From contig NZ_JAATJK010000001.1 of NCBI RefSeq assembly GCF_011927785.1, positions 5,985,001 to 6,049,000 on the forward strand: a DNA stretch of 64,000 bases. The letters run 5' to 3'. The DNA is from Micromonospora profundi. GTDB taxonomy: Bacteria; Actinomycetota; Actinomycetes; Mycobacteriales; Micromonosporaceae. Numbering within the stretch: the first letter of the stretch is position 1; each line of letters opens with the position of its first letter. Shown in pieces: positions 37,390 through 44,212 of the stretch. A program made the translations under genes and the position numbers. The notes beneath the pieces are model-generated. The model saw only the letters and a list, made by a program, of their open reading frames with translations. It did not search any database and was not told the origin of the DNA.

Positions 37390-40300
37390 TCAGATCAGGC
37401 GGAGCTGGCGGTCCTTCGGGCGGCGCGGCTCGGTCTCGCCGAACCGCTCGAACAGGCCCGGGTCGATGGCACCGAGGAACGGTGACGGCGAGCAGTCGCG
37501 CTCCACACCGTGCCGGGTGCGGCGGGCGGCATGGCTGACGTACAGGCGGTCCTGGGCGCGGGTCAGGCCGACGAAGAAGAGTCGACGTTCCTCGGCGACC
37601 GCGTCCTCGTCGGATGTCGAGCCGGGCCAGCGCAGCGGCAGTAGCCCATCCTCGGCACCGACCAGGAACACCACAGGGAACTCCAGACCCTTGGCGGCGT
37701 GCAGGGTCAGCAGCGTGACCGCCTCGGCGCGCGGGTCGAGGGCGTCCACCTCGGCGCCGGTGGCCAACTGCGACAGGAACATCTCCAGGTCGTCGCCGCA
37801 ACGTCGGGCAAGTGGGGTCAGCAGGTCCACGGCCGAGCGGACGTCCTCGGGGCGTACCGTGCTGGCGGCGCCGTCGAGGGTGGGCACCGCGAACCGTTCC
37901 GCGACGACCTGGCCGGCCAGGCGCACCCGGGCGGCCAGCGAACCGGCCAACCCGTCGGCGTGCCGCAACTCGCGGGCGATGGCTGCCACCCCGGGTCGGT
38001 CCCGCAGCCGGTCGTGCGAGCGCTTCTGCACCGGGATGTTGGCCCGGGCCAGTGCGTCCACGATCGGGGCGGCTTGCGCGTCGGTGCGGTACAGCACGGC
38101 GATGTCGGAGAACGACAGGGTGGTGACCCGGCCGTCGATCCGGCCCGAGTCCAGCGAGCGGTGGGACAGCCCGCCGACCAGTTCGTCGACGGTACGGACC
38201 ACGAAGTCGGCCTCCTCGGCGACCGACGCCGCCGGGTAGCGGCCGACGAGCGGCGCCTCCGGGTCGAGTCGGGCCGGGTCCAGTCGCCGGCCACGCACCA
38301 GCGAAGACGGCGCGATGGCCTGCACGGCGGCGGCCAGGATCGGTGCCGACGAGCGGTAGTTGCGGTTGAGCCGGACCAGCCGGGCGTCCGTGAAGTCCTG
38401 GGAGAAGCGCAGGAAGTAGCCGACGTCGGCACCCCGGAACGAGTAGATCGCCTGGTCCGGGTCGCCGATCGCGCAGAGGTTGCCGTCGGCGGGGCTGAGT
38501 AGCCGAAGCAGCTCGTACTGCACCGCGTCGACGTCCTGGTACTCGTCGACGAAGATCCACCGCCAGCGGTCCCGGTACCGCTCGACAAGCTTCCGGTCGG
38601 CCCGCAGCAACTCCACCGGCAGGCTCACCAGCTCGTCCAGGTCGACCAGATCCTGCTTGCGCAGCAGCGCCACATAGCTGGTGAGGTCGTCGCCGGCCTC
38701 CGACCGGGCCGCCGCGCGCTCGCCGTCGTCGGCGATCCGGAAGTCGGCCGGCAGGCCCGCAGCCTCGGCGTTCTCCCGCAGGATCGTCAGCCCCAGCGCG
38801 TGGAACGTACCCACCGTGACGTCCTCGGCGACCGGGCCGAGCAGGCTGTCGAGACGGTGCCGCAGCTCCTCGGCCGCCCGCCTGGTGAAGGTGATGGCCA
38901 GGCAGTGCTCGGGAAAGACGTTCAGCTCCGCACAGAGGTACGCGATCCGGTGGGTGAGCGTCCGGGTCTTCCCGGTGCCCGGACCGGCCACGATGAGCAG
39001 CGGGCCGCCGGGCGCGGACGCCGCAACCCGCTGCATCGCGTCCAGCCGGTCCAGCAGACCGGTGCCGACCTCCTCCATCCCCGCGAGCATCGGTTCGAAC
39101 GGCTCGTGCGGCGACGGCGGCGACGCGATCGGCGGAGCAGGAGGCGGCGCCGGAGCCTTCCGCTTCGGCTCCGCCTTCGCCGCCGCCGGGCGCTTGGCCG
39201 TGGAGCGGGCCGCCGGCTCGGTGGGCCGCCGCTGCGCCGGCACAGGTACGTCGAACAGCGTCTCCTGTGCCGTACCGGCACCGGCTCCCAGCTCCGCCGG
39301 ATCGAAGAGGGTGATGACGCCGTACTCGCCGTCGTAGCCGGGCACCCGGCGTACGTCGCCGCGCCGCAGTCGACCGATGCCCTCCGCGAGCAACTCGCCC
39401 CCGGCCTGGGCGATGTCCGGCAACGGTGTCGTGGTGAGGATCTCCAGCTCGGGGCCGAGCGCGGCGAGCAACTCGTTGAGCCGCCCCTCCACCTTCTTCG
39501 AACGCGCGCCCACCTTGTTGATCTCACCGAGGATCTCGGCGAGCGGCACCAGGTGGGTGACGTCGCGGGCGTGTGCCGGTCGGTGCCCGTCCGGGCGGTC
39601 GGCCAACTCCTCGATGCGGCTGAGGACGCCCACTGTGAGCGGCTTGCCGCACTCGGGGCAGCGCCCGTCGGCAGCCCGGGTGCGCTCCGGGGACCAGTTC
39701 ACCCCGCACAGCCGGTGCCCGTCCGCGTGGTACTTGCCCTCCTCGGGGAAGAACTCGATGGTGCCGGCGAGACCGTCGCCGGTCCGCAGCGCCTCCCGGA
39801 TGGCGAAGTAGTCCCGTTCGGCCGCCAGCACAGTGGCCTCGCGGCCCAGCGCCGGTGGGGAGTGCGCGTCGGAGTTGGAGACCAGTTGATAGCCGTCCAG
39901 ACTGCCGACCCGCCAGTTCATCGCCGGGTCGGAGGAGAGCCCGGTCTCCACGGCGAAGATGTGCTCGGCCAGGTCGGCGTAGCAGTCGGCGATCGCGTCG
40001 AAGCCGGACTTCGAGCCCAGCGCCGAGAACCACGGCGTCCAGATGTGCGCCGGGACGAGGTAGCCATCCGGGCTCGCCTCCAGGGTGATCTCCAGCAGGT
40101 CCCGGGAGTCCAGACCGAGGATCGGCCGGCCGTCCGAGCCGAGGTTGCCGATCCGCCCCAGCGCTGTGTTGAACCGGGCCACCGCATCCAGGTCCGGCAG
40201 ATAGATCAGGTGGTGCACCTTGCGGGTGCGGTCGTCCCGCTTGTAGATGGTGGAGATCTCCACGCTCAGCATGAACCGCACCGCGTCCGCGTCGGTCGTG

Positions 40301-40617
40301 CCGGCGAGGCGCGGCGGCAGCCGACGGGCGATGTCGCGTTCCGCCTCCGGGTCCAGGCGGTAGAGCCCCGGCTCGGCCGGGCGCAGCGTCTCCCGCAGGT
40401 GGTCGTACCAGGCGGGATGGGTGAAATCACCGGTGCCGAGCAGGGCGATGCCCTTGCGCCGGGCCCACCACGCCAGGTTCGGCAGCGTGAGATCGCGGCT
40501 GCACGCGCGCGAATATTTCGAGTGGATGTGCAGGTCCGCGACGAAAGGCGGGAAGCCACCGGGGGGTACGGCGCTGAACGGGGGCACGCCGCATCCTGTC
40601 ACGTGCGCCATGCCCAC
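37390..40617 (-). CDS. EndoQ-like PHP nuclease fused to a UvrD-type helicase
   Basis: A 1075-residue fusion. Residues about 25-430 resemble endonuclease Q: PHP metal-binding residues DLHIH (His 30, 32), GTGDFTHP, SVEIST, HHLIYLPD and SDAH (249-252), then a zinc-ribbon-like part with Cys 304 and CPEC (320-323). A disordered Ala/Pro/Lys linker (about 445-510) follows. From about 520 a superfamily 1A helicase has Walker A AGPGTGKT (544-551), VDEYQDVD (Asp 691), GDPDQAIYSFRGAD, LNRNYRSS, TLHAAKGLEFPVVFL and FFVGLTRAQDRLYVS. All motifs are intact. GTG at 40617 or ATG at 40611 could start it. Probably cleaves DNA at deaminated bases and unwinds it. Confidence 0.9.
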   Translation of the reverse strand: MGMAHVTGCGVPPFSAVPPGGFPPFVADLHIHSKYSRACSRDLTLPNLAWWARRKGIALLGTGDFTHPAWYDHLRETLRPAEPGLYRLDPEAERDIARRLPPRLAGTTDADAVRFMLSVEISTIYKRDDRTRKVHHLIYLPDLDAVARFNTALGRIGNLGSDGRPILGLDSRDLLEITLEASPDGYLVPAHIWTPWFSALGSKSGFDAIADCYADLAEHIFAVETGLSSDPAMNWRVGSLDGYQLVSNSDAHSPPALGREATVLAAERDYFAIREALRTGDGLAGTIEFFPEEGKYHADGHRLCGVNWSPERTRAADGRCPECGKPLTVGVLSRIEELADRPDGHRPAHARDVTHLVPLAEILGEINKVGARSKKVEGRLNELLAALGPELEILTTTPLPDIAQAGGELLAEGIGRLRRGDVRRVPGYDGEYGVITLFDPAELGAGAGTAQETLFDVPVPAQRRPTEPAARSTAKRPAAAKAEPKRKAPAPPPAPPIASPPSPHEPFEPMLAGMEEVGTGLLDRLDAMQRVAASAPGGPLLIVAGPGTGKTRTLTHRIAYLCAELNVFPEHCLAITFTRRAAEELRHRLDSLLGPVAEDVTVGTFHALGLTILRENAEAAGLPADFRIADDGERAAARSEAGDDLTSYVALLRKQDLVDLDELVSLPVELLRADRKLVERYRDRWRWIFVDEYQDVDAVQYELLRLLSPADGNLCAIGDPDQAIYSFRGADVGYFLRFSQDFTDARLVRLNRNYRSSAPILAAAVQAIAPSSLVRGRRLDPARLDPEAPLVGRYPAASVAEEADFVVRTVDELVGGLSHRSLDSGRIDGRVTTLSFSDIAVLYRTDAQAAPIVDALARANIPVQKRSHDRLRDRPGVAAIARELRHADGLAGSLAARVRLAGQVVAERFAVPTLDGAASTVRPEDVRSAVDLLTPLARRCGDDLEMFLSQLATGAEVDALDPRAEAVTLLTLHAAKGLEFPVVFLVGAEDGLLPLRWPGSTSDEDAVAEERRLFFVGLTRAQDRLYVSHAARRTRHGVERDCSPSPFLGAIDPGLFERFGETEPRRPKDRQLRLI

Positions 40618-40648: not shown

Positions 40649-41893
40649 CTATGACGAGCGCAACTCCACGAGGGTGATCTGCGGTTCGGCGCCGACCCTC
40701 ACCGGCGGACCCCAGAAACCGGCGCCGTTCGTCACGTAGACCTTGGTGCCGTCGACCTCACCGAGGCCACTGACCACCGGCTGTTCCAGGCGGACGGCGA
40801 GGTTGAACGGCACCATCTGCCCGCCGTGGGTGTGCCCGGAGAGTTGCAGGTCGACGCCGTACCGGGCCGCTTCCTTCGCCGCCACGGGCTGATGCGCGAG
40901 CAGCACCACCGGGCGGCTCGGATCGCGATCACCGAGGGCGGCGGCGAAGTCCGGGCCAGCGGCGAGGCCGGTGCCCGTGCCGGACAGGTCGTTCACACCG
41001 GCCAGGTCGAGCACGCCACCCCGGGCCTGGATCTCCTGCCGCTTGTTCTGCAGCACCCGCAGGCCGAGCCGGTCCACCTCCTGGACCCACTCCTCCACCC
41101 CCGAGTAGTACTCGTGGTTGCCGGTGACGAAGAAGCTGCCGTATCTCGAACGCAGGTCACGCAGTGGCGCGGCGGCCGAGCCCAACTCGGCGACGGAACC
41201 GTCGACCAGGTCACCGACGACGGCCACCAGATCGGCGTCGAGACGGTTGATCGCGGCGACGATCCGCTCGGTGTGCGCACGACCACGCAGCGGGCCGATG
41301 TGGATGTCGGAGACGGTGGCGATGCGGAGGCCGTCCATGCTGCGCGGGAGCTTCGCGAGCGGGATCTGCACCCTGTCGAGTTGTGGTGGGCCGAGGGCCG
41401 TGCGGATGCCGTACCCCGTGATGCCGGTGGCGGTGAGGCCGGCGAAGATGGCCGCCCCGCGGGCCAGCAGCAGCCGGCGGGCCGGGTCGTGGTCCGGTGT
41501 CCGCACGGCGGCGGCGGCCGGAGGCTCGGTGGGCCCGGCGGCGCCGACGAGCACCGGCTCGGGTGCCGCGGTGGTCGGCTCGGCGGCGGTCACGCGGCGG
41601 CGGAGCACCAGCCGGGCCACGAGCATCGGCACTTCGAGCACGACGAGGACGACCAGCAGGTAGAACATCAGCGCGAGCCAGAGGTAGCCCGGCCAGGCGA
41701 GCCAGTAGAGACCGGCCTGCGTGCCGGCCATGGTGGCCGGCACGAGCAGCGCCAGCACCAGGGCGGCGATCCCACCGACCCGTCGCCGGCGGCCCGGCGC
41801 TGTGGTGTCGCGGATCAGCCGCTTCCACAGGTAGAGGTGGATGAGGCCGGTGACCAAAGCCAGCACGGTCACGAACCCGAGTACCGCCAACAT
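40649..41893 (-). CDS. Membrane-anchored calcineurin-like metallophosphoesterase
   Basis: A 414-residue protein with four N-terminal hydrophobic helices (about 1-110), a short linker and a phosphoesterase domain (about 165-410). Metal-binding motifs are in order: VSDIHIG, VVGDLVDG, VTGNHEYY, LLAHQP and LSGHTHGGQ. The active site should face outside if the helix topology is conventional; the YaeI/YkuE-type relatives act on phospholipid or UDP-sugar intermediates. The ATG at 41893 has GGAGG upstream; the frame extends to 42118 inside moaD without homology. Confidence 0.92.
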   Translation of the reverse strand: MLAVLGFVTVLALVTGLIHLYLWKRLIRDTTAPGRRRRVGGIAALVLALLVPATMAGTQAGLYWLAWPGYLWLALMFYLLVVLVVLEVPMLVARLVLRRRVTAAEPTTAAPEPVLVGAAGPTEPPAAAAVRTPDHDPARRLLLARGAAIFAGLTATGITGYGIRTALGPPQLDRVQIPLAKLPRSMDGLRIATVSDIHIGPLRGRAHTERIVAAINRLDADLVAVVGDLVDGSVAELGSAAAPLRDLRSRYGSFFVTGNHEYYSGVEEWVQEVDRLGLRVLQNKRQEIQARGGVLDLAGVNDLSGTGTGLAAGPDFAAALGDRDPSRPVVLLAHQPVAAKEAARYGVDLQLSGHTHGGQMVPFNLAVRLEQPVVSGLGEVDGTKVYVTNGAGFWGPPVRVGAEPQITLVELRSS

Positions 41894-41906
41894 CCGTGCG
41901 CCTCCC

Positions 41907-42161
41907 TCAGCCGCCCGCGAACGGGGGCAGGACATCGATCGTGGCCCCGCCGGGCAGGGGTGCCTGCCGATCATGACAGGTGACGCCGTCCACGAGGAAA
42001 CTGGCGACCCGCAGCACGGTGGCGAGCCGATCACCGTGCCGCTGGGCCAGGTCGGCGGTGAGGTCGTCGAGCGACCGGCCGGCGGGCGCCGTCTCCTCGG
42101 AGCGCCCGGCCGCGGCACGCGCGCCCGCGAAGTAGCGGACGGTCAGCTGGTCCTGGGTCAC
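41907..42161 (-). CDS. moaD: Molybdopterin synthase sulfur carrier subunit MoaD
   Basis: An 84-residue ubiquitin-like sulfur carrier. It contains VRYFAGARAAAG, a beta-grasp pattern, and ends PPFAGG; the C-terminal Gly-Gly is the thiocarboxylation site. GTG start at 42161, three bases after the moaA stop, so moaA-moaD are co-transcribed and probably coupled. Its catalytic partner MoaE lies 12 kb away at 29195. The activating adenylyltransferase (MoeB/MoeZ) is not in the window. Confidence 0.95.
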   Translation of the reverse strand: MTQDQLTVRYFAGARAAAGRSEETAPAGRSLDDLTADLAQRHGDRLATVLRVASFLVDGVTCHDRQAPLPGGATIDVLPPFAGG

Positions 42162-42164
42162 GCC

Positions 42165-43178
42165 TCAGCCTCCGATCGCGGACATCGGCCGGGTTGGCTG
42201 GAGGAAGGCCGGGTCGTCGATGCCGTGCCCGGCGCGCTTGCCCCACATCGCGGTGCGCCACCGCTGGGCCAACTCGTCGTCGGTCGCGCCACTGCGCAGG
42301 GCCGCCCGCAGGTCGGATTCCTCCGTGGCGAACAGGCAGGCGCGGACCTGGCCGTCGGCGGTCAGCCGGGTGCGGTCACAGTCGCCGCAGAAAGGGCGGG
42401 TGACGCTGGCGATCACGCCGACCCGGGCTGGGCCGCCGTCTACCAACCAGGTCTCCGCCGGGGCCGCGCCGCGCTCGGCCGGGTCGGGGCTCAGATCGAA
42501 CCGGGTACGCAGAGAGGCCAGGATCTCCTCGGCGGTCACCATCGTGGTGCGGTCCCAGCCGTGCTGCGCGTCCAGCGGCATCTGTTCGATGATCCGCAAC
42601 TGGTAGCCGTTGTCGACGGCGAAGCGGAGCAGTGCCGGCGCCTCGTCCTCGTTGACGCCGCGCATCAACACCGAATTGATCTTCACCGGGTTGAGGCCGG
42701 CGGCAGCCGCTCCGGCGAGACCGGCGAGCACCGCGTCCAGGCGGGGACGGCGGGTCAGCTGCGTGAACCGGGCCGCGTCGAGGGTGTCCAGCGAGACGTT
42801 CACCCGATCCAGGCCGGCCGTGGCCAGCGCGGGAGCCAGCCGGTCGAGGCCGATGCCGTTCGTGGTGAGCGAGATGCGAGGGCGGGGCATGAGCGCGGCG
42901 ACCGAGGCCACGATGCCGACCAGCCCGGGTCGGATCAGTGGCTCACCGCCGGTGAACCGCACCTCTGTCACGCCGAGCCGCTCGACGGCCACCCGGACCA
43001 GCCGGACGATCTCGTCGTCGGTCAGCAGTTGCGGACCCGCGAGCCAGGGCAGCCCTTCGGCCGGCATGCAGTAGGTGCACCGCAGGTTGCACTTGTCGGT
43101 GAGGGACACGCGAAGGTCCCGCGCGACGCGGCCGTACCGGTCGACGAGGACGCCGTCGGTCGGCGGGGCGACGCTCAC
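42165..43178 (-). CDS. moaA: GTP 3',8-cyclase MoaA (radical SAM)
   Basis: Catalyses the first step of molybdenum-cofactor synthesis from GTP. The 337-residue protein has the radical-SAM cluster motif CNLRCTYC (about residues 27-34), [10 protein letters not shown], a second 4Fe-4S site in [22 protein letters not shown], and the C-terminal Gly-Gly tail (SAIGG) needed for activity. GTG at 43178 was chosen over an open upstream frame because [18 protein letters not shown] follows and TACGGT lies 6 bases before it. The first bases overlap the end of the upstream kinase gene by 4. Confidence 0.97.
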
Positions 43179-44089
43179 CTGTCGACCGTAGCGCGCTCGA
43201 GCCCGCTCAGAGCGGCACCGGCGGTCTGGACGACCGCATCCCGGTAGCTGGCACCGAAGAGCGCTGTGTGCACGAGCAGCAGATGCAGTTGATGCAGAGG
43301 CACCCGGGCACGCCATCCGTCCGGCAGCGGCCAGGTCTCCCGGTAGGCCGCCAGGACCCGATCCAGGTGGGGGATGCCGCCGAAGAGCGCCAACTGGGCG
43401 AGATCTGTCTCCCGATGCCCGCCGTGCGCCGCCGGGTCGACAAGCCAGACCCGCCCCTCGGCACCCCACAGCACATTGCCCGGCCACAGGTCACCGTGGA
43501 TGCGGGCGGGCGGCTCGTCCCCGCCGAACTCGCCGATCCTGCCGATGACCTGCTCGACCACCGCCGCGTCGGCACCTTCCAACGCGCCACCGTCGACCGA
43601 TCGACGCAGGTAGGGAACGAGTCGACGCTCGGCGAACCACGTCGACCACTGCCGGTCGTCGACGGTGTTGTCCTGCGGGAGCGCCCCGATGAAGCCGGGC
43701 CAGGTCGCGCCGAAGGCCGGCGGACCGGCCCGGTGCAGGCCGGCCAACTCCCGACCGAACCGCTCGGCCGCCGTGGGCGTCGGCTCGCCGGGCTCCAGCC
43801 AGTCGAGCGCCAACAGGTCGGGCAGCGCCACGATCACCTCGGGTACGCCCACAGCGTCGGCCTCCCGCAGCCAGCGCAGCCCGGCGGCCTCGCTGGCGAA
43901 GAAGCCCTCCGGCGCCGGTTGGTCGGCCCGCTCCGGCCAGGACTTGGTGAAGATCGAGTGGCCGTCGTCGAGGGTGAGCCGAGCTGCGGCGCAGATGTCC
44001 CCACCGGCGACCGGCGTCTCCCGGATCCGCTGATGGGTCAGGAACGTCGGCAGGTGTGCCGGGTGCGCGCGCAGGTACGCCAGGTCCAT
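43175..44089 (-). CDS. Fructosamine kinase family protein
   Basis: A 304-residue kinase-fold protein of the fructosamine/ketosamine kinase family, predicted to phosphorylate glycated amines and so promote deglycation. It has the catalytic loop [13 protein letters not shown] (about residues 195-207) and the metal-binding [17 protein letters not shown] (about 214-230). The N-terminal ATP site is [12 protein letters not shown] with the Lys in IFTKSW. The ATG at 44089 fits the family length and has TACCGT 6 bases ahead. Its stop overlaps the moaA GTG by 4 bases, an unusual pairing. Confidence 0.88.
43185..43190 (-). promoter_or_regulatory. -10 element before moaA
   Basis: On the minus strand TACGGT ends 6 bases before the GTG at 43178, inside the end of the upstream kinase gene. 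It may give moaA its own leaderless transcript. Confidence 0.45.
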
Positions 44090-44095
44090 CAGCGC

Positions 44096-44101
44096 ACGGT
44101 A
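44096..44101 (-). promoter_or_regulatory. -10 element, probable leaderless start of fructosamine kinase gene
   Basis: On the minus strand TACCGT ends 6 bases before the ATG at 44089. Confidence 0.5.
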
Positions 44102-44184
44102 GCCGCTGCCCGTGACACCCGGGTGTACGCGACCACATCGAGGCATGCGTGATCGGCGATTACCAGGCCGAATACGCTGCGTAG

Positions 44185-44212
44185 CTGTGGATAAGCCGCG
44201 TGTCATCCACAG
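44185..44212. promoter_or_regulatory. CTGTGGAT-N12-ATCCACAG inverted repeat (paired DnaA boxes)
   Basis: The left half contains TGTGGATAA (44186-44194), the exact complement of the DnaA box TTATCCACA. The right half holds TCATCCACA. The element ends 39 bases before the DUF4192 start. Confidence 0.6.

What the first reader, a model, noticed from the sequence alone, without database searches (positions are those of the whole stretch)
37390..40617. Natural fusion of an EndoQ-like PHP nuclease with a UvrD-type helicase
One 1075-residue chain joins an N-terminal domain with PHP motifs (DLHIH, SVEIST, SDAH) and an EndoQ-type zinc-ribbon-like part to a complete SF1A helicase. EndoQ is known as a nuclease that cuts beside deaminated bases. 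Physical linkage to a helicase in a high-GC genome, where cytosine deamination is a constant threat, suggests a nick-and-unwind repair enzyme. The linker is disordered, as expected for two independently acting modules. I infer the repair role; the fusion itself is read directly.
Basis: partly seen in the sequence, partly recalled or inferred. Interest (0 to 1): 0.85.

Follow-up and report, generated by a model that had tools for sequence, protein, structure and literature searches.

The report
Clamp-motif EndoQ–helicase fusion protein
One bacterial protein joins a nuclease domain of the kind that nicks DNA beside deaminated bases to a DNA-unwinding motor, and carries short tags that look like hooks for the ring that slides along DNA, so it may be a self-contained, ring-guided repair machine that has not yet been tested.

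Summary

The variable, disordered parts hold two conserved short motifs. The C-terminus is QxxL-hydrophobic (QLRLI here; 72 of 73 complete fusions), close to the bacterial sliding-clamp-binding consensus. An LF motif (QETLF here) follows the EndoQ domain in 70 of 71. Helicase-less relatives often end exactly at that LF. Archaeal EndoQ binds PCNA with its C-terminus.

Best reading: a clamp-tethered enzyme that nicks 5' of a deaminated base and unwinds the damaged strand. Anatomy and motifs are shown; activity, clamp binding and coupling are inferred. Each half is a known kind; no paper that I saw describes the fusion.

The parts
37390..40617 (-). whole fusion gene, 1075 aa (likely start codon GTG at 40587, residue 11)
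   Evidence: homologues
39307..40539 (-). EndoQ-like PHP nuclease domain, residues 27-437
39649..39717 (-). zinc-ribbon site H301, C304, C320, C323 (HxxC..CPxC; CxxC..CPxC in PfuEndoQ)
   Evidence: alignment; invariant in 46 rows; metal binding itself inferred
39253..39267 (-). internal putative clamp-binding motif QETLF, residues 451-455
   Evidence: LF within 35 aa of the EndoQ end in 70 of 71 fusions, shuffle mean 3.4; ends many helicase-less EndoQ proteins; position checked
39064..39285 (-). variable Pro/Ala-rich disordered linker, residues about 445-518
   Evidence: pLDDT under 50 at 447-489 and 491-517; variable in alignments
37435..39063 (-). SF1A UvrD/PcrA-type helicase, residues 519-1061, motor motifs kept
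37747..38010 (-). reduced 2B-like subdomain, residues about 870-957, no GIG motif
   Evidence: (GIG in 1 of 67 parsed segments of 80 loci)
37393..37407 (-). C-terminal putative beta-clamp-binding motif QLRLI, residues 1071-1075
   Evidence: Q..L[FLIVMW] at the end in 72 of 73 fusions, shuffle mean 0.45; Q1071 and L1074 invariant in 46 rows; position checked
40649..42118 (-). upstream neighbour on the same strand, calcineurin-like phosphoesterase; 31 bases apart, possible co-transcription; no functional link shown

Best explanation
A conserved bacterial repair enzyme in one chain. The EndoQ-like domain would flip out a deaminated base (uracil, hypoxanthine, xanthine) or meet an abasic site, and nick the strand just 5' of it, leaving a 3'-OH. 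The linked 3'-to-5' SF1A motor would then move on the undamaged strand and peel off the damaged 5' end, so that a polymerase can fill in and a flap nuclease and ligase can finish. Both ends of the work would be hooked to the beta sliding clamp: by QETLF after the nuclease and by QLRLI at the C-terminus, perhaps one in each pocket of the dimeric ring. Shown here: the fusion, its folds, the kept catalytic residues, the motifs and their conservation. Inferred: the activities, clamp binding, the coupling of nicking to unwinding, the strand choice, and release from 2B auto-inhibition.
For: Fold and sequence match to PfuEndoQ and UvrD. Catalytic and base-excluding residues identical (residues from PMC8307549, passages). 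Bacillus pumilus EndoQ is reported active on U, Hx and AP sites (PMC8438529, PMC6202378, passages). A review already postulates a DNA helicase acting after the EndoQ nick (PMC8438529). Archaeal EndoQ binds PCNA by a C-terminal box, K_D 55 nM, which stimulates it; the same paper notes beta-clamp-type motifs in bacterial EndoQ C-termini (PMC4858679, passages). C-terminal motif in 72 of 73 fusions, and 17 of 17 after thinning to under 72% EndoQ identity (shuffle mean 0.12); internal LF in 70 of 71, thinned 16 of 16. Residues before the tail motif are less conserved than its Q and L. Published consensus QLxLF and Q-phi-x-[L/M]-[F/L] (PMC4549789, PMC13254535, passages); actinobacterial NucS carries a C-terminal [E/K][L/Y][T/R]LF, and its C-terminus is needed for clamp binding (PMC8228993, passages). 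Of the 83 short-tailed EndoQ-like proteins among 120 listed, 39 end exactly in LF (shuffle mean 0.48). EndoQ and helicase distances correlate (Spearman 0.83 over 71).
Against: No biochemistry of any fusion was found. TIGR00375 scores are under the curated cut-off. The window's last motif residue is Ile, not F or L; the strict form QLxL[FL] at the end holds in only 40 of 73. The internal motif has no fixed Gln (Q in 17 of 79 loci). It is missing in L051 and reads SFDLG in L131. L093, dropped before the counts, has an unrelated C-terminus. UDG-family genes coexist with the EndoQ gene in 14 of 15 genomes, so there is no simple need for it. The distance correlation is what vertical inheritance alone would give. 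Helicase-less relatives show that the nuclease can do without the fused motor, and 65 of 120 listed relatives of the helicase part carry no EndoQ sequence; most begin inside the linker or motor and look like fragments, but a few lie on long contigs and could be stand-alone helicases or split genes.
Confidence: 0.57

Rival explanations
1. Two repair enzymes merely tied together for co-expression. The nuclease and the motor act on different substrates, and the clamp motifs recruit each to replication forks separately.
For: Long, variable, disordered linker. The nuclease exists alone in Glycomyces, Streptosporangium and Pseudochelatococcus, and no similar helicase was found in the fetched flanks of L085, L108, L039 and L040. 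65 of 120 listed relatives of the helicase part show no EndoQ sequence; a few of them lie on contigs of 100 kb or more, and their upstream DNA was not checked.
Against: Most of those 65 begin inside the linker or the motor and many come from contigs of about 2-3 kb or are named partial, as fragments of fusions would. The fusion persists across deep branches. Both modules carry their own clamp-type motif and yet stay fused.
Confidence: 0.23
2. An anti-phage enzyme: it nicks and unwinds uracil-containing or otherwise modified invading DNA, comparable to Gabija (nuclease plus UvrD-type helicase).
For: PADLOC GajB profiles match the helicase, best E 3e-70. A review suggests an antiviral role for bacterial EndoQ (PMC8307549, passage).
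Against: The match is to the shared motor: the PcrA profile scores better (E 9e-111). Present in 105 of 121 genomes of the family, with neighbours kept in about 20 of 80 loci, and no defence-type Pfam match in the eight adjacent ORFs scanned, three of which match nothing.
Confidence: 0.08
3. Replication-linked removal of dUMP or dIMP misinserted in the new strand, with the clamp marking that strand, rather than repair of deamination.
For: Clamps are left on nascent DNA (general knowledge). PCNA stimulates archaeal EndoQ (PMC4858679). Clamp-type motifs on both modules.
Against: Nothing here separates this from repair of deaminated bases; the same enzyme could do both.
Confidence: 0.12

Closest known systems
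Endonuclease Q (PfuEndoQ, TkoEndoQ, Bacillus pumilus EndoQ)
   Same: PHP fold plus zinc ribbon and C-terminal part; catalytic and base-excluding residues; clamp-type motif after the domain
   Different: Fused to a helicase; HxxC instead of CxxC in the zinc site; below the TIGR00375 cut-off; motif internal, not C-terminal; activity untested
UvrD / PcrA / Rep SF1A helicases
   Different: N-terminal nuclease; reduced 2B subdomain without the GIG motif; C-terminal QLxL-hydrophobic tail, not seen in the two UvrD-type proteins of this genome with a readable end
NucS/EndoMS of Actinobacteria
   Same: Mismatch-specific nuclease with a short C-terminal xxxLF clamp motif (PMC8228993, passages)
   Different: Unrelated nuclease fold (recalled), no helicase
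RecBCD, AddAB, AdnAB
   Same: Helicase-nuclease machines; RecB binds the beta clamp (PMC13254535, passages)
   Different: Act at double-strand ends with another nuclease fold (recalled); here a PHP nuclease for single-base damage
Gabija GajA-GajB
   Same: Nuclease with a UvrD-type helicase
   Different: Two genes, different nuclease, defence role (recalled)

Membership tests
Endonuclease Q | PHP motifs and metal ligands | tested here: met
   DLHIH, E120, H135/H136, H191, D250/H252 align with PfuEndoQ and are invariant or nearly so in 46 rows
Endonuclease Q | EndoQ fold including the zinc-binding and C-terminal parts | tested here: met
Endonuclease Q | Four zinc-ribbon ligands | tested here: met
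   H301, C304, C320, C323 invariant in 46 rows; first ligand His instead of Cys; metal not shown
Endonuclease Q | Curated TIGR00375 score (326.6 bits) | tested here: not met
   156.5 bits; 0 of 121 genomes of the window's family reach it, so I file the domain as EndoQ-like, not as a TIGR00375 equivalog
Endonuclease Q | Nicks 5' of U, Hx, Xan, AP | not testable with these tools
   only the residues can be checked; they are kept
UvrD/PcrA SF1A helicase | Motor motifs I, Ia, II, III, IV, V, VI | tested here: met
UvrD/PcrA SF1A helicase | Full-size 2B regulatory subdomain with GIG motif | tested here: not met
   IVa-V span 126 in the window, median 122.5 in 62 parsed fusions; GIG in 1 of 67. A reduced 2B is still there: 519 residues align with D. 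radiodurans UvrD at rmsd 4.0
UvrD or PcrA equivalog | NCBIfam cut-off of TIGR01073 / TIGR01075 | tested here: not met
   371 of 911 and 303 of 1144 bits
beta-clamp client | Q-phi-x-[L/M]-[F/L] or a close form in a disordered region | tested here: inconclusive
   Q and L in all 72 aligned tails; strict QLxL[FL] in 40 of 73 and Q[LM]xL[FLI] in 61 of 73; the window ends in I, outside the quoted consensus
beta-clamp client | Physical binding to DnaN | not testable with these tools
   needs peptide binding or co-purification
Gabija defence system | GajA partner gene next to GajB | tested here: not met
   no nuclease of that kind among the Pfam matches of the eight adjacent ORFs scanned

The most novel reading that the evidence does not exclude
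A bacterial excision-repair route carried by one polypeptide: it binds both pockets of the sliding clamp with two motifs, incises beside a deaminated base without a glycosylase, and unwinds the damaged strand itself with a motor whose 2B brake is reduced. Relatives in several phyla would run a pathway parallel to base excision repair.
Probability: 0.43. Interest if true: 0.8.

Novelty: new variant of a known kind. Interest (0 to 1): 0.62.

Why it matters
EndoQ research has lacked the downstream step and a well-defined bacterial context; a review only postulates 'a DNA helicase' after the nick (PMC8438529, passages). The clamp-type motifs turn a loose idea (a two-headed enzyme) into specific point-mutation tests. 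If right, bacteria run a glycosylase-free excision route alongside UDG, and the fusion offers a natural SF1A motor with a reduced 2B subdomain, of interest for the 2B auto-inhibition question. Databases already name the parts (TIGR00375, UvrD-helicase domain-containing). None of the titles or passages that I saw describes the fusion or its motifs; listings seen: 20 of 984 papers, 40 of 94, 2 of 2, 20 of 35, 2 of 2, 10 of 522.

Tried and rejected
Sequencing or assembly artefact: rejected. Regulation by LexA: a recalled actinobacterial SOS-box pattern with up to one mismatch gave 4 matches in the window against 3.4 expected; none lies upstream of the gene, one lies inside it. UDG replacement: rejected, UDG-family genes are present in 14 of 15 genomes with the EndoQ gene and 4 times in the window's genome. 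Conserved operon partner: phosphoesterase, MoaA and fructosamine kinase relatives lie nearby in 20, 20 and 19 of 80 loci, all with Micromonosporaceae titles, so this looks like shared chromosome order rather than a functional module. Other UvrD-family proteins of the same genome as controls: the two with a visible C-terminus (L121, L122) lack a QxxL-hydrophobic end; L123 ran off its stretch, L124 was not recovered by the script, and the frames read for L127 and L128 were more distant helicases. First AlphaFold job with 12 sequences modelled the EndoQ part poorly; the 46-sequence model replaced it. A tree of 153 EndoQ domains (midpoint root, quick search) needs 17 changes between fused and helicase-less, at least 10 forced by starred branches; several helicase-less rows are named 'partial' or come from short contigs, so the number is too high. 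The firm cases are Glycomyces, Streptosporangium and Pseudochelatococcus.

Checking did not bear this out: 55 of 120 listed proteins carry EndoQ sequence and 65 do not; most of the 65 look like fragments, some may not be. I lowered the coupling estimate from 0.55 to 0.5, the overall confidence from 0.6 to 0.57 and the novel case from 0.45 to 0.43, and raised the tied-together rival from 0.2 to 0.23, for that reason. I also moved the clamp-motif membership row from met to inconclusive, because the window's last residue is Ile.

Rows dropped before the counts: of 80 loci, L045, L053, L097 (cut by contig ends), L104 (frame ends early, 903 aa), L093 (no recognisable motif V and an unrelated C-terminus; a frameshift or a true exception), L085 and L108 (no helicase); 73 remain. 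The one miss, L048, has QLSLL 12 residues before its end. For the linker count L057 and L076 were not parsed (71 of 73). could parse 71 fusions for distances and 62 for spans; one search parsed 67 of 80 segments.

Papers: only passages were seen of those cited. The crystal-structure paper (10.1093/nar/gky261) and PMC6941527 are not held. The Bacillus pumilus EndoQ paper and the 2021 PNAS structure paper were seen only as references, so a mention of the fusion there cannot be excluded.
Full report

Is the nuclease intact? In PfuEndoQ, E76, H84 and H139 coordinate the active-site zinc and abolish cutting when changed to alanine; H139, G169 and S171 keep out T and A (PMC8307549, passages). Counting along the alignment they correspond to E120, H135, H191, G226 and S228 of the window protein, all invariant in the 46-row alignment. 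The zinc ribbon of PfuEndoQ (CxxC, CPxC) becomes H301xxC304, C320PxC323, also invariant.

Is the helicase intact? All motor motifs are present. The 2B subdomain, which represses UvrD-family monomers and whose deletion activates Rep (PMC13238157, passages), is reduced. From motif IVa to V the window has 126 residues and 62 parsed fusions have a median of 122.5, against 203 in PcrA as I count on the alignment. The GIG motif that touches duplex DNA in UvrD is present in 1 of 67 parsed segments. Something of 2B remains: the model has helices there and aligns over 519 residues with Deinococcus UvrD at rmsd 4.0. That the reduction frees the motor from auto-inhibition is inference.

How common is it? 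In a sample of the phylum 9 of 396 genomes match TIGR00375, two of them only weakly; 5 of the 9 show a frame over 1000 aa. In the window's family 105 of 121 genomes match and, by my count of the table, 98 of those have a frame of at least 950 aa; of the other seven, two are true helicase-less genes (L039, L040) and several lie on fragmented assemblies. In the class sampled around L102 (Chelativorans) 7 of 240 match, four with frames over 1000 aa and one of 937, and in the class sampled around L115 (Pirellulaceae) 2 of 148, both over 1000. Named isolates with the fusion belong to Actinomycetota, Myxococcota (Sorangium, Polyangium) and Pseudomonadota (Chelativorans). MAGs labelled Acidobacteriota, Planctomycetota, Binatota, Poribacteria and Melainabacteria add more, with the usual doubt about MAG labels.

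The overlooked part. The linker and the tail are low-confidence and vary freely, yet each holds one conserved short motif. The very C-terminus is Q-x-x-L-hydrophobic in 72 of 73 complete fusions (mean 0.45 in shuffled tails), and in 17 of 17 after thinning to under 72% EndoQ identity (0.12). Q[LM]xL[FLI] holds in 61 of 73 and the strict QLxL[FL] in 40 of 73. In the 72 tails Q and the second L never vary. About 13 residues after the end of the EndoQ domain (median of 79 loci, range 9-23) an LF follows in 70 of 71 fusions (shuffle mean 3.4), thinned 16 of 16. In the 120 listed close homologues the internal motif is QETLFD 84, AETLFD 18, QDTLFD 13 and others 5, and the tail QLRLI 109, QLRLL 9, QLRLM 2. 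Related sequences share history, so shuffles overstate significance; the thinned counts and the variable surroundings are the better argument. Exceptions are L051, which lacks the LF, the fusion in L131, which reads SFDLG there, and L093, whose C-terminus is unrelated.

What the motifs are likely to be. The bacterial clamp-binding consensus is QLxLF, often at the C-terminus (PMC4549789, passages), or Q-phi-x-[L/M]-[F/L] (PMC13254535, passages); the window's final Ile is a departure. Actinobacterial NucS carries a C-terminal [E/K][L/Y][T/R]LF, and its C-terminus is needed for binding DnaN, which strongly raises its activity (PMC8228993, passages); the internal motif resembles it. TkoEndoQ binds PCNA through its C-terminus (K_D 55 nM) and is stimulated, and the authors noted beta-clamp-type motifs in bacterial EndoQ C-termini (PMC4858679, passages). 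The internal motif therefore sits where EndoQ keeps its clamp hook. Nature also supplies a test: of the 120 listed relatives of a helicase-less EndoQ, 83 have short tails; 65 of these have an LF-type match after the domain, 48 have LF within the last 14 residues and 39 as the last two residues (shuffle mean 0.48). Some carry names marked partial or lie on short contigs. On the EndoQ tree the helicase-less Glycomyces group is sister to fused Glycomyces (support 98), and helicase-less Pseudochelatococcus falls inside the fused Alphaproteobacteria, so the helicase has probably been lost more than once while the LF was kept; the root is a midpoint, so direction is inferred. In the window's genome the two other UvrD-type proteins with readable ends do not end in such a motif.

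How it most likely works. EndoQ cuts 5' of the damaged base and leaves a 3'-OH and a 5'-phosphate (PMC4357722, passages). A review already proposes that a DNA helicase with flap endonuclease, polymerase and ligase finishes EndoQ repair (PMC8438529, passages). A 3'-to-5' motor moving on the undamaged strand from that nick would displace the damaged 5' end; this geometry follows from SF1A polarity and is my inference. Two clamp motifs could occupy both pockets of the dimeric ring, or hand over to the polymerase. Coupling remains unproven. EndoQ and helicase distances correlate (Spearman 0.83, 71 fusions), but vertical descent alone would do that. Whether the motor also exists alone is open: of 120 listed relatives of the helicase part 55 carry EndoQ sequence and 65 do not; most of the latter start inside the linker or motor, as fragments or mis-called starts would, but a few sit on contigs of 100 kb or more. 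The C-terminal motif is present in 113 of these 120.

What it is not. It does not replace uracil glycosylase: UDG-family proteins occur in 14 of 15 genomes with the EndoQ gene (13 fused, two helicase-less) and four times in this genome. It is not evidently a defence gene: GajB profiles match the shared motor less well than PcrA does, no defence-type family was recognised in the eight adjacent ORFs scanned, three of which match nothing, and neighbours are shared within the family.

Verdict. Novelty: a new variant of a known kind, widespread, named in databases by its parts. I put EndoQ-type activity at about 0.8, clamp binding at about 0.8 and true nick-unwind coupling at about 0.5.

Noticed in passing
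window 40649-44206: Upstream on the same strand lie a calcineurin-like phosphoesterase, a MoaA-type radical SAM protein and a fructosamine kinase; relatives of these lie near the fusion in 20, 20 and 19 of 80 loci, all Micromonosporaceae by title.
   Followed up: partly
L039, L040 (with L034), L064, L066: Within Glycomyces the gene occurs fused (L064, L066) and as nuclease alone ending ..ELFD (L039) or ..TLFE (L040); five other sampled genomes of the group g246 show no match.
   Followed up: partly
L020, L027, L032, L033, L035, L036, L082 linkers: Some linkers, for example of Plantactinospora endophytica (L082), carry a tandem motif (ETLFADALFDVP and similar), as if the internal LF motif had been doubled.
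   Followed up: no
L093 and L104: Sorangium cellulosum (L093) lacks the usual motif V and tail, and Micromonospora parastrephiae (L104) has a frame ending early at 903 aa; frameshifts or decay are possible.
   Followed up: no
P0245, P0252, P0253, P0312, P0320: Helicase-only database entries of this type, some on long contigs (P0245 from Micromonospora olivasterospora on 6.9 Mb begins at the end of the EndoQ part); split genes, start-codon calls or real stand-alone helicases.
   Followed up: partly
window protein residues about 630-655: The 1B region of the window helicase lacks a stretch of some tens of residues that the distant fusions have.
   Followed up: no
   Followed up: no
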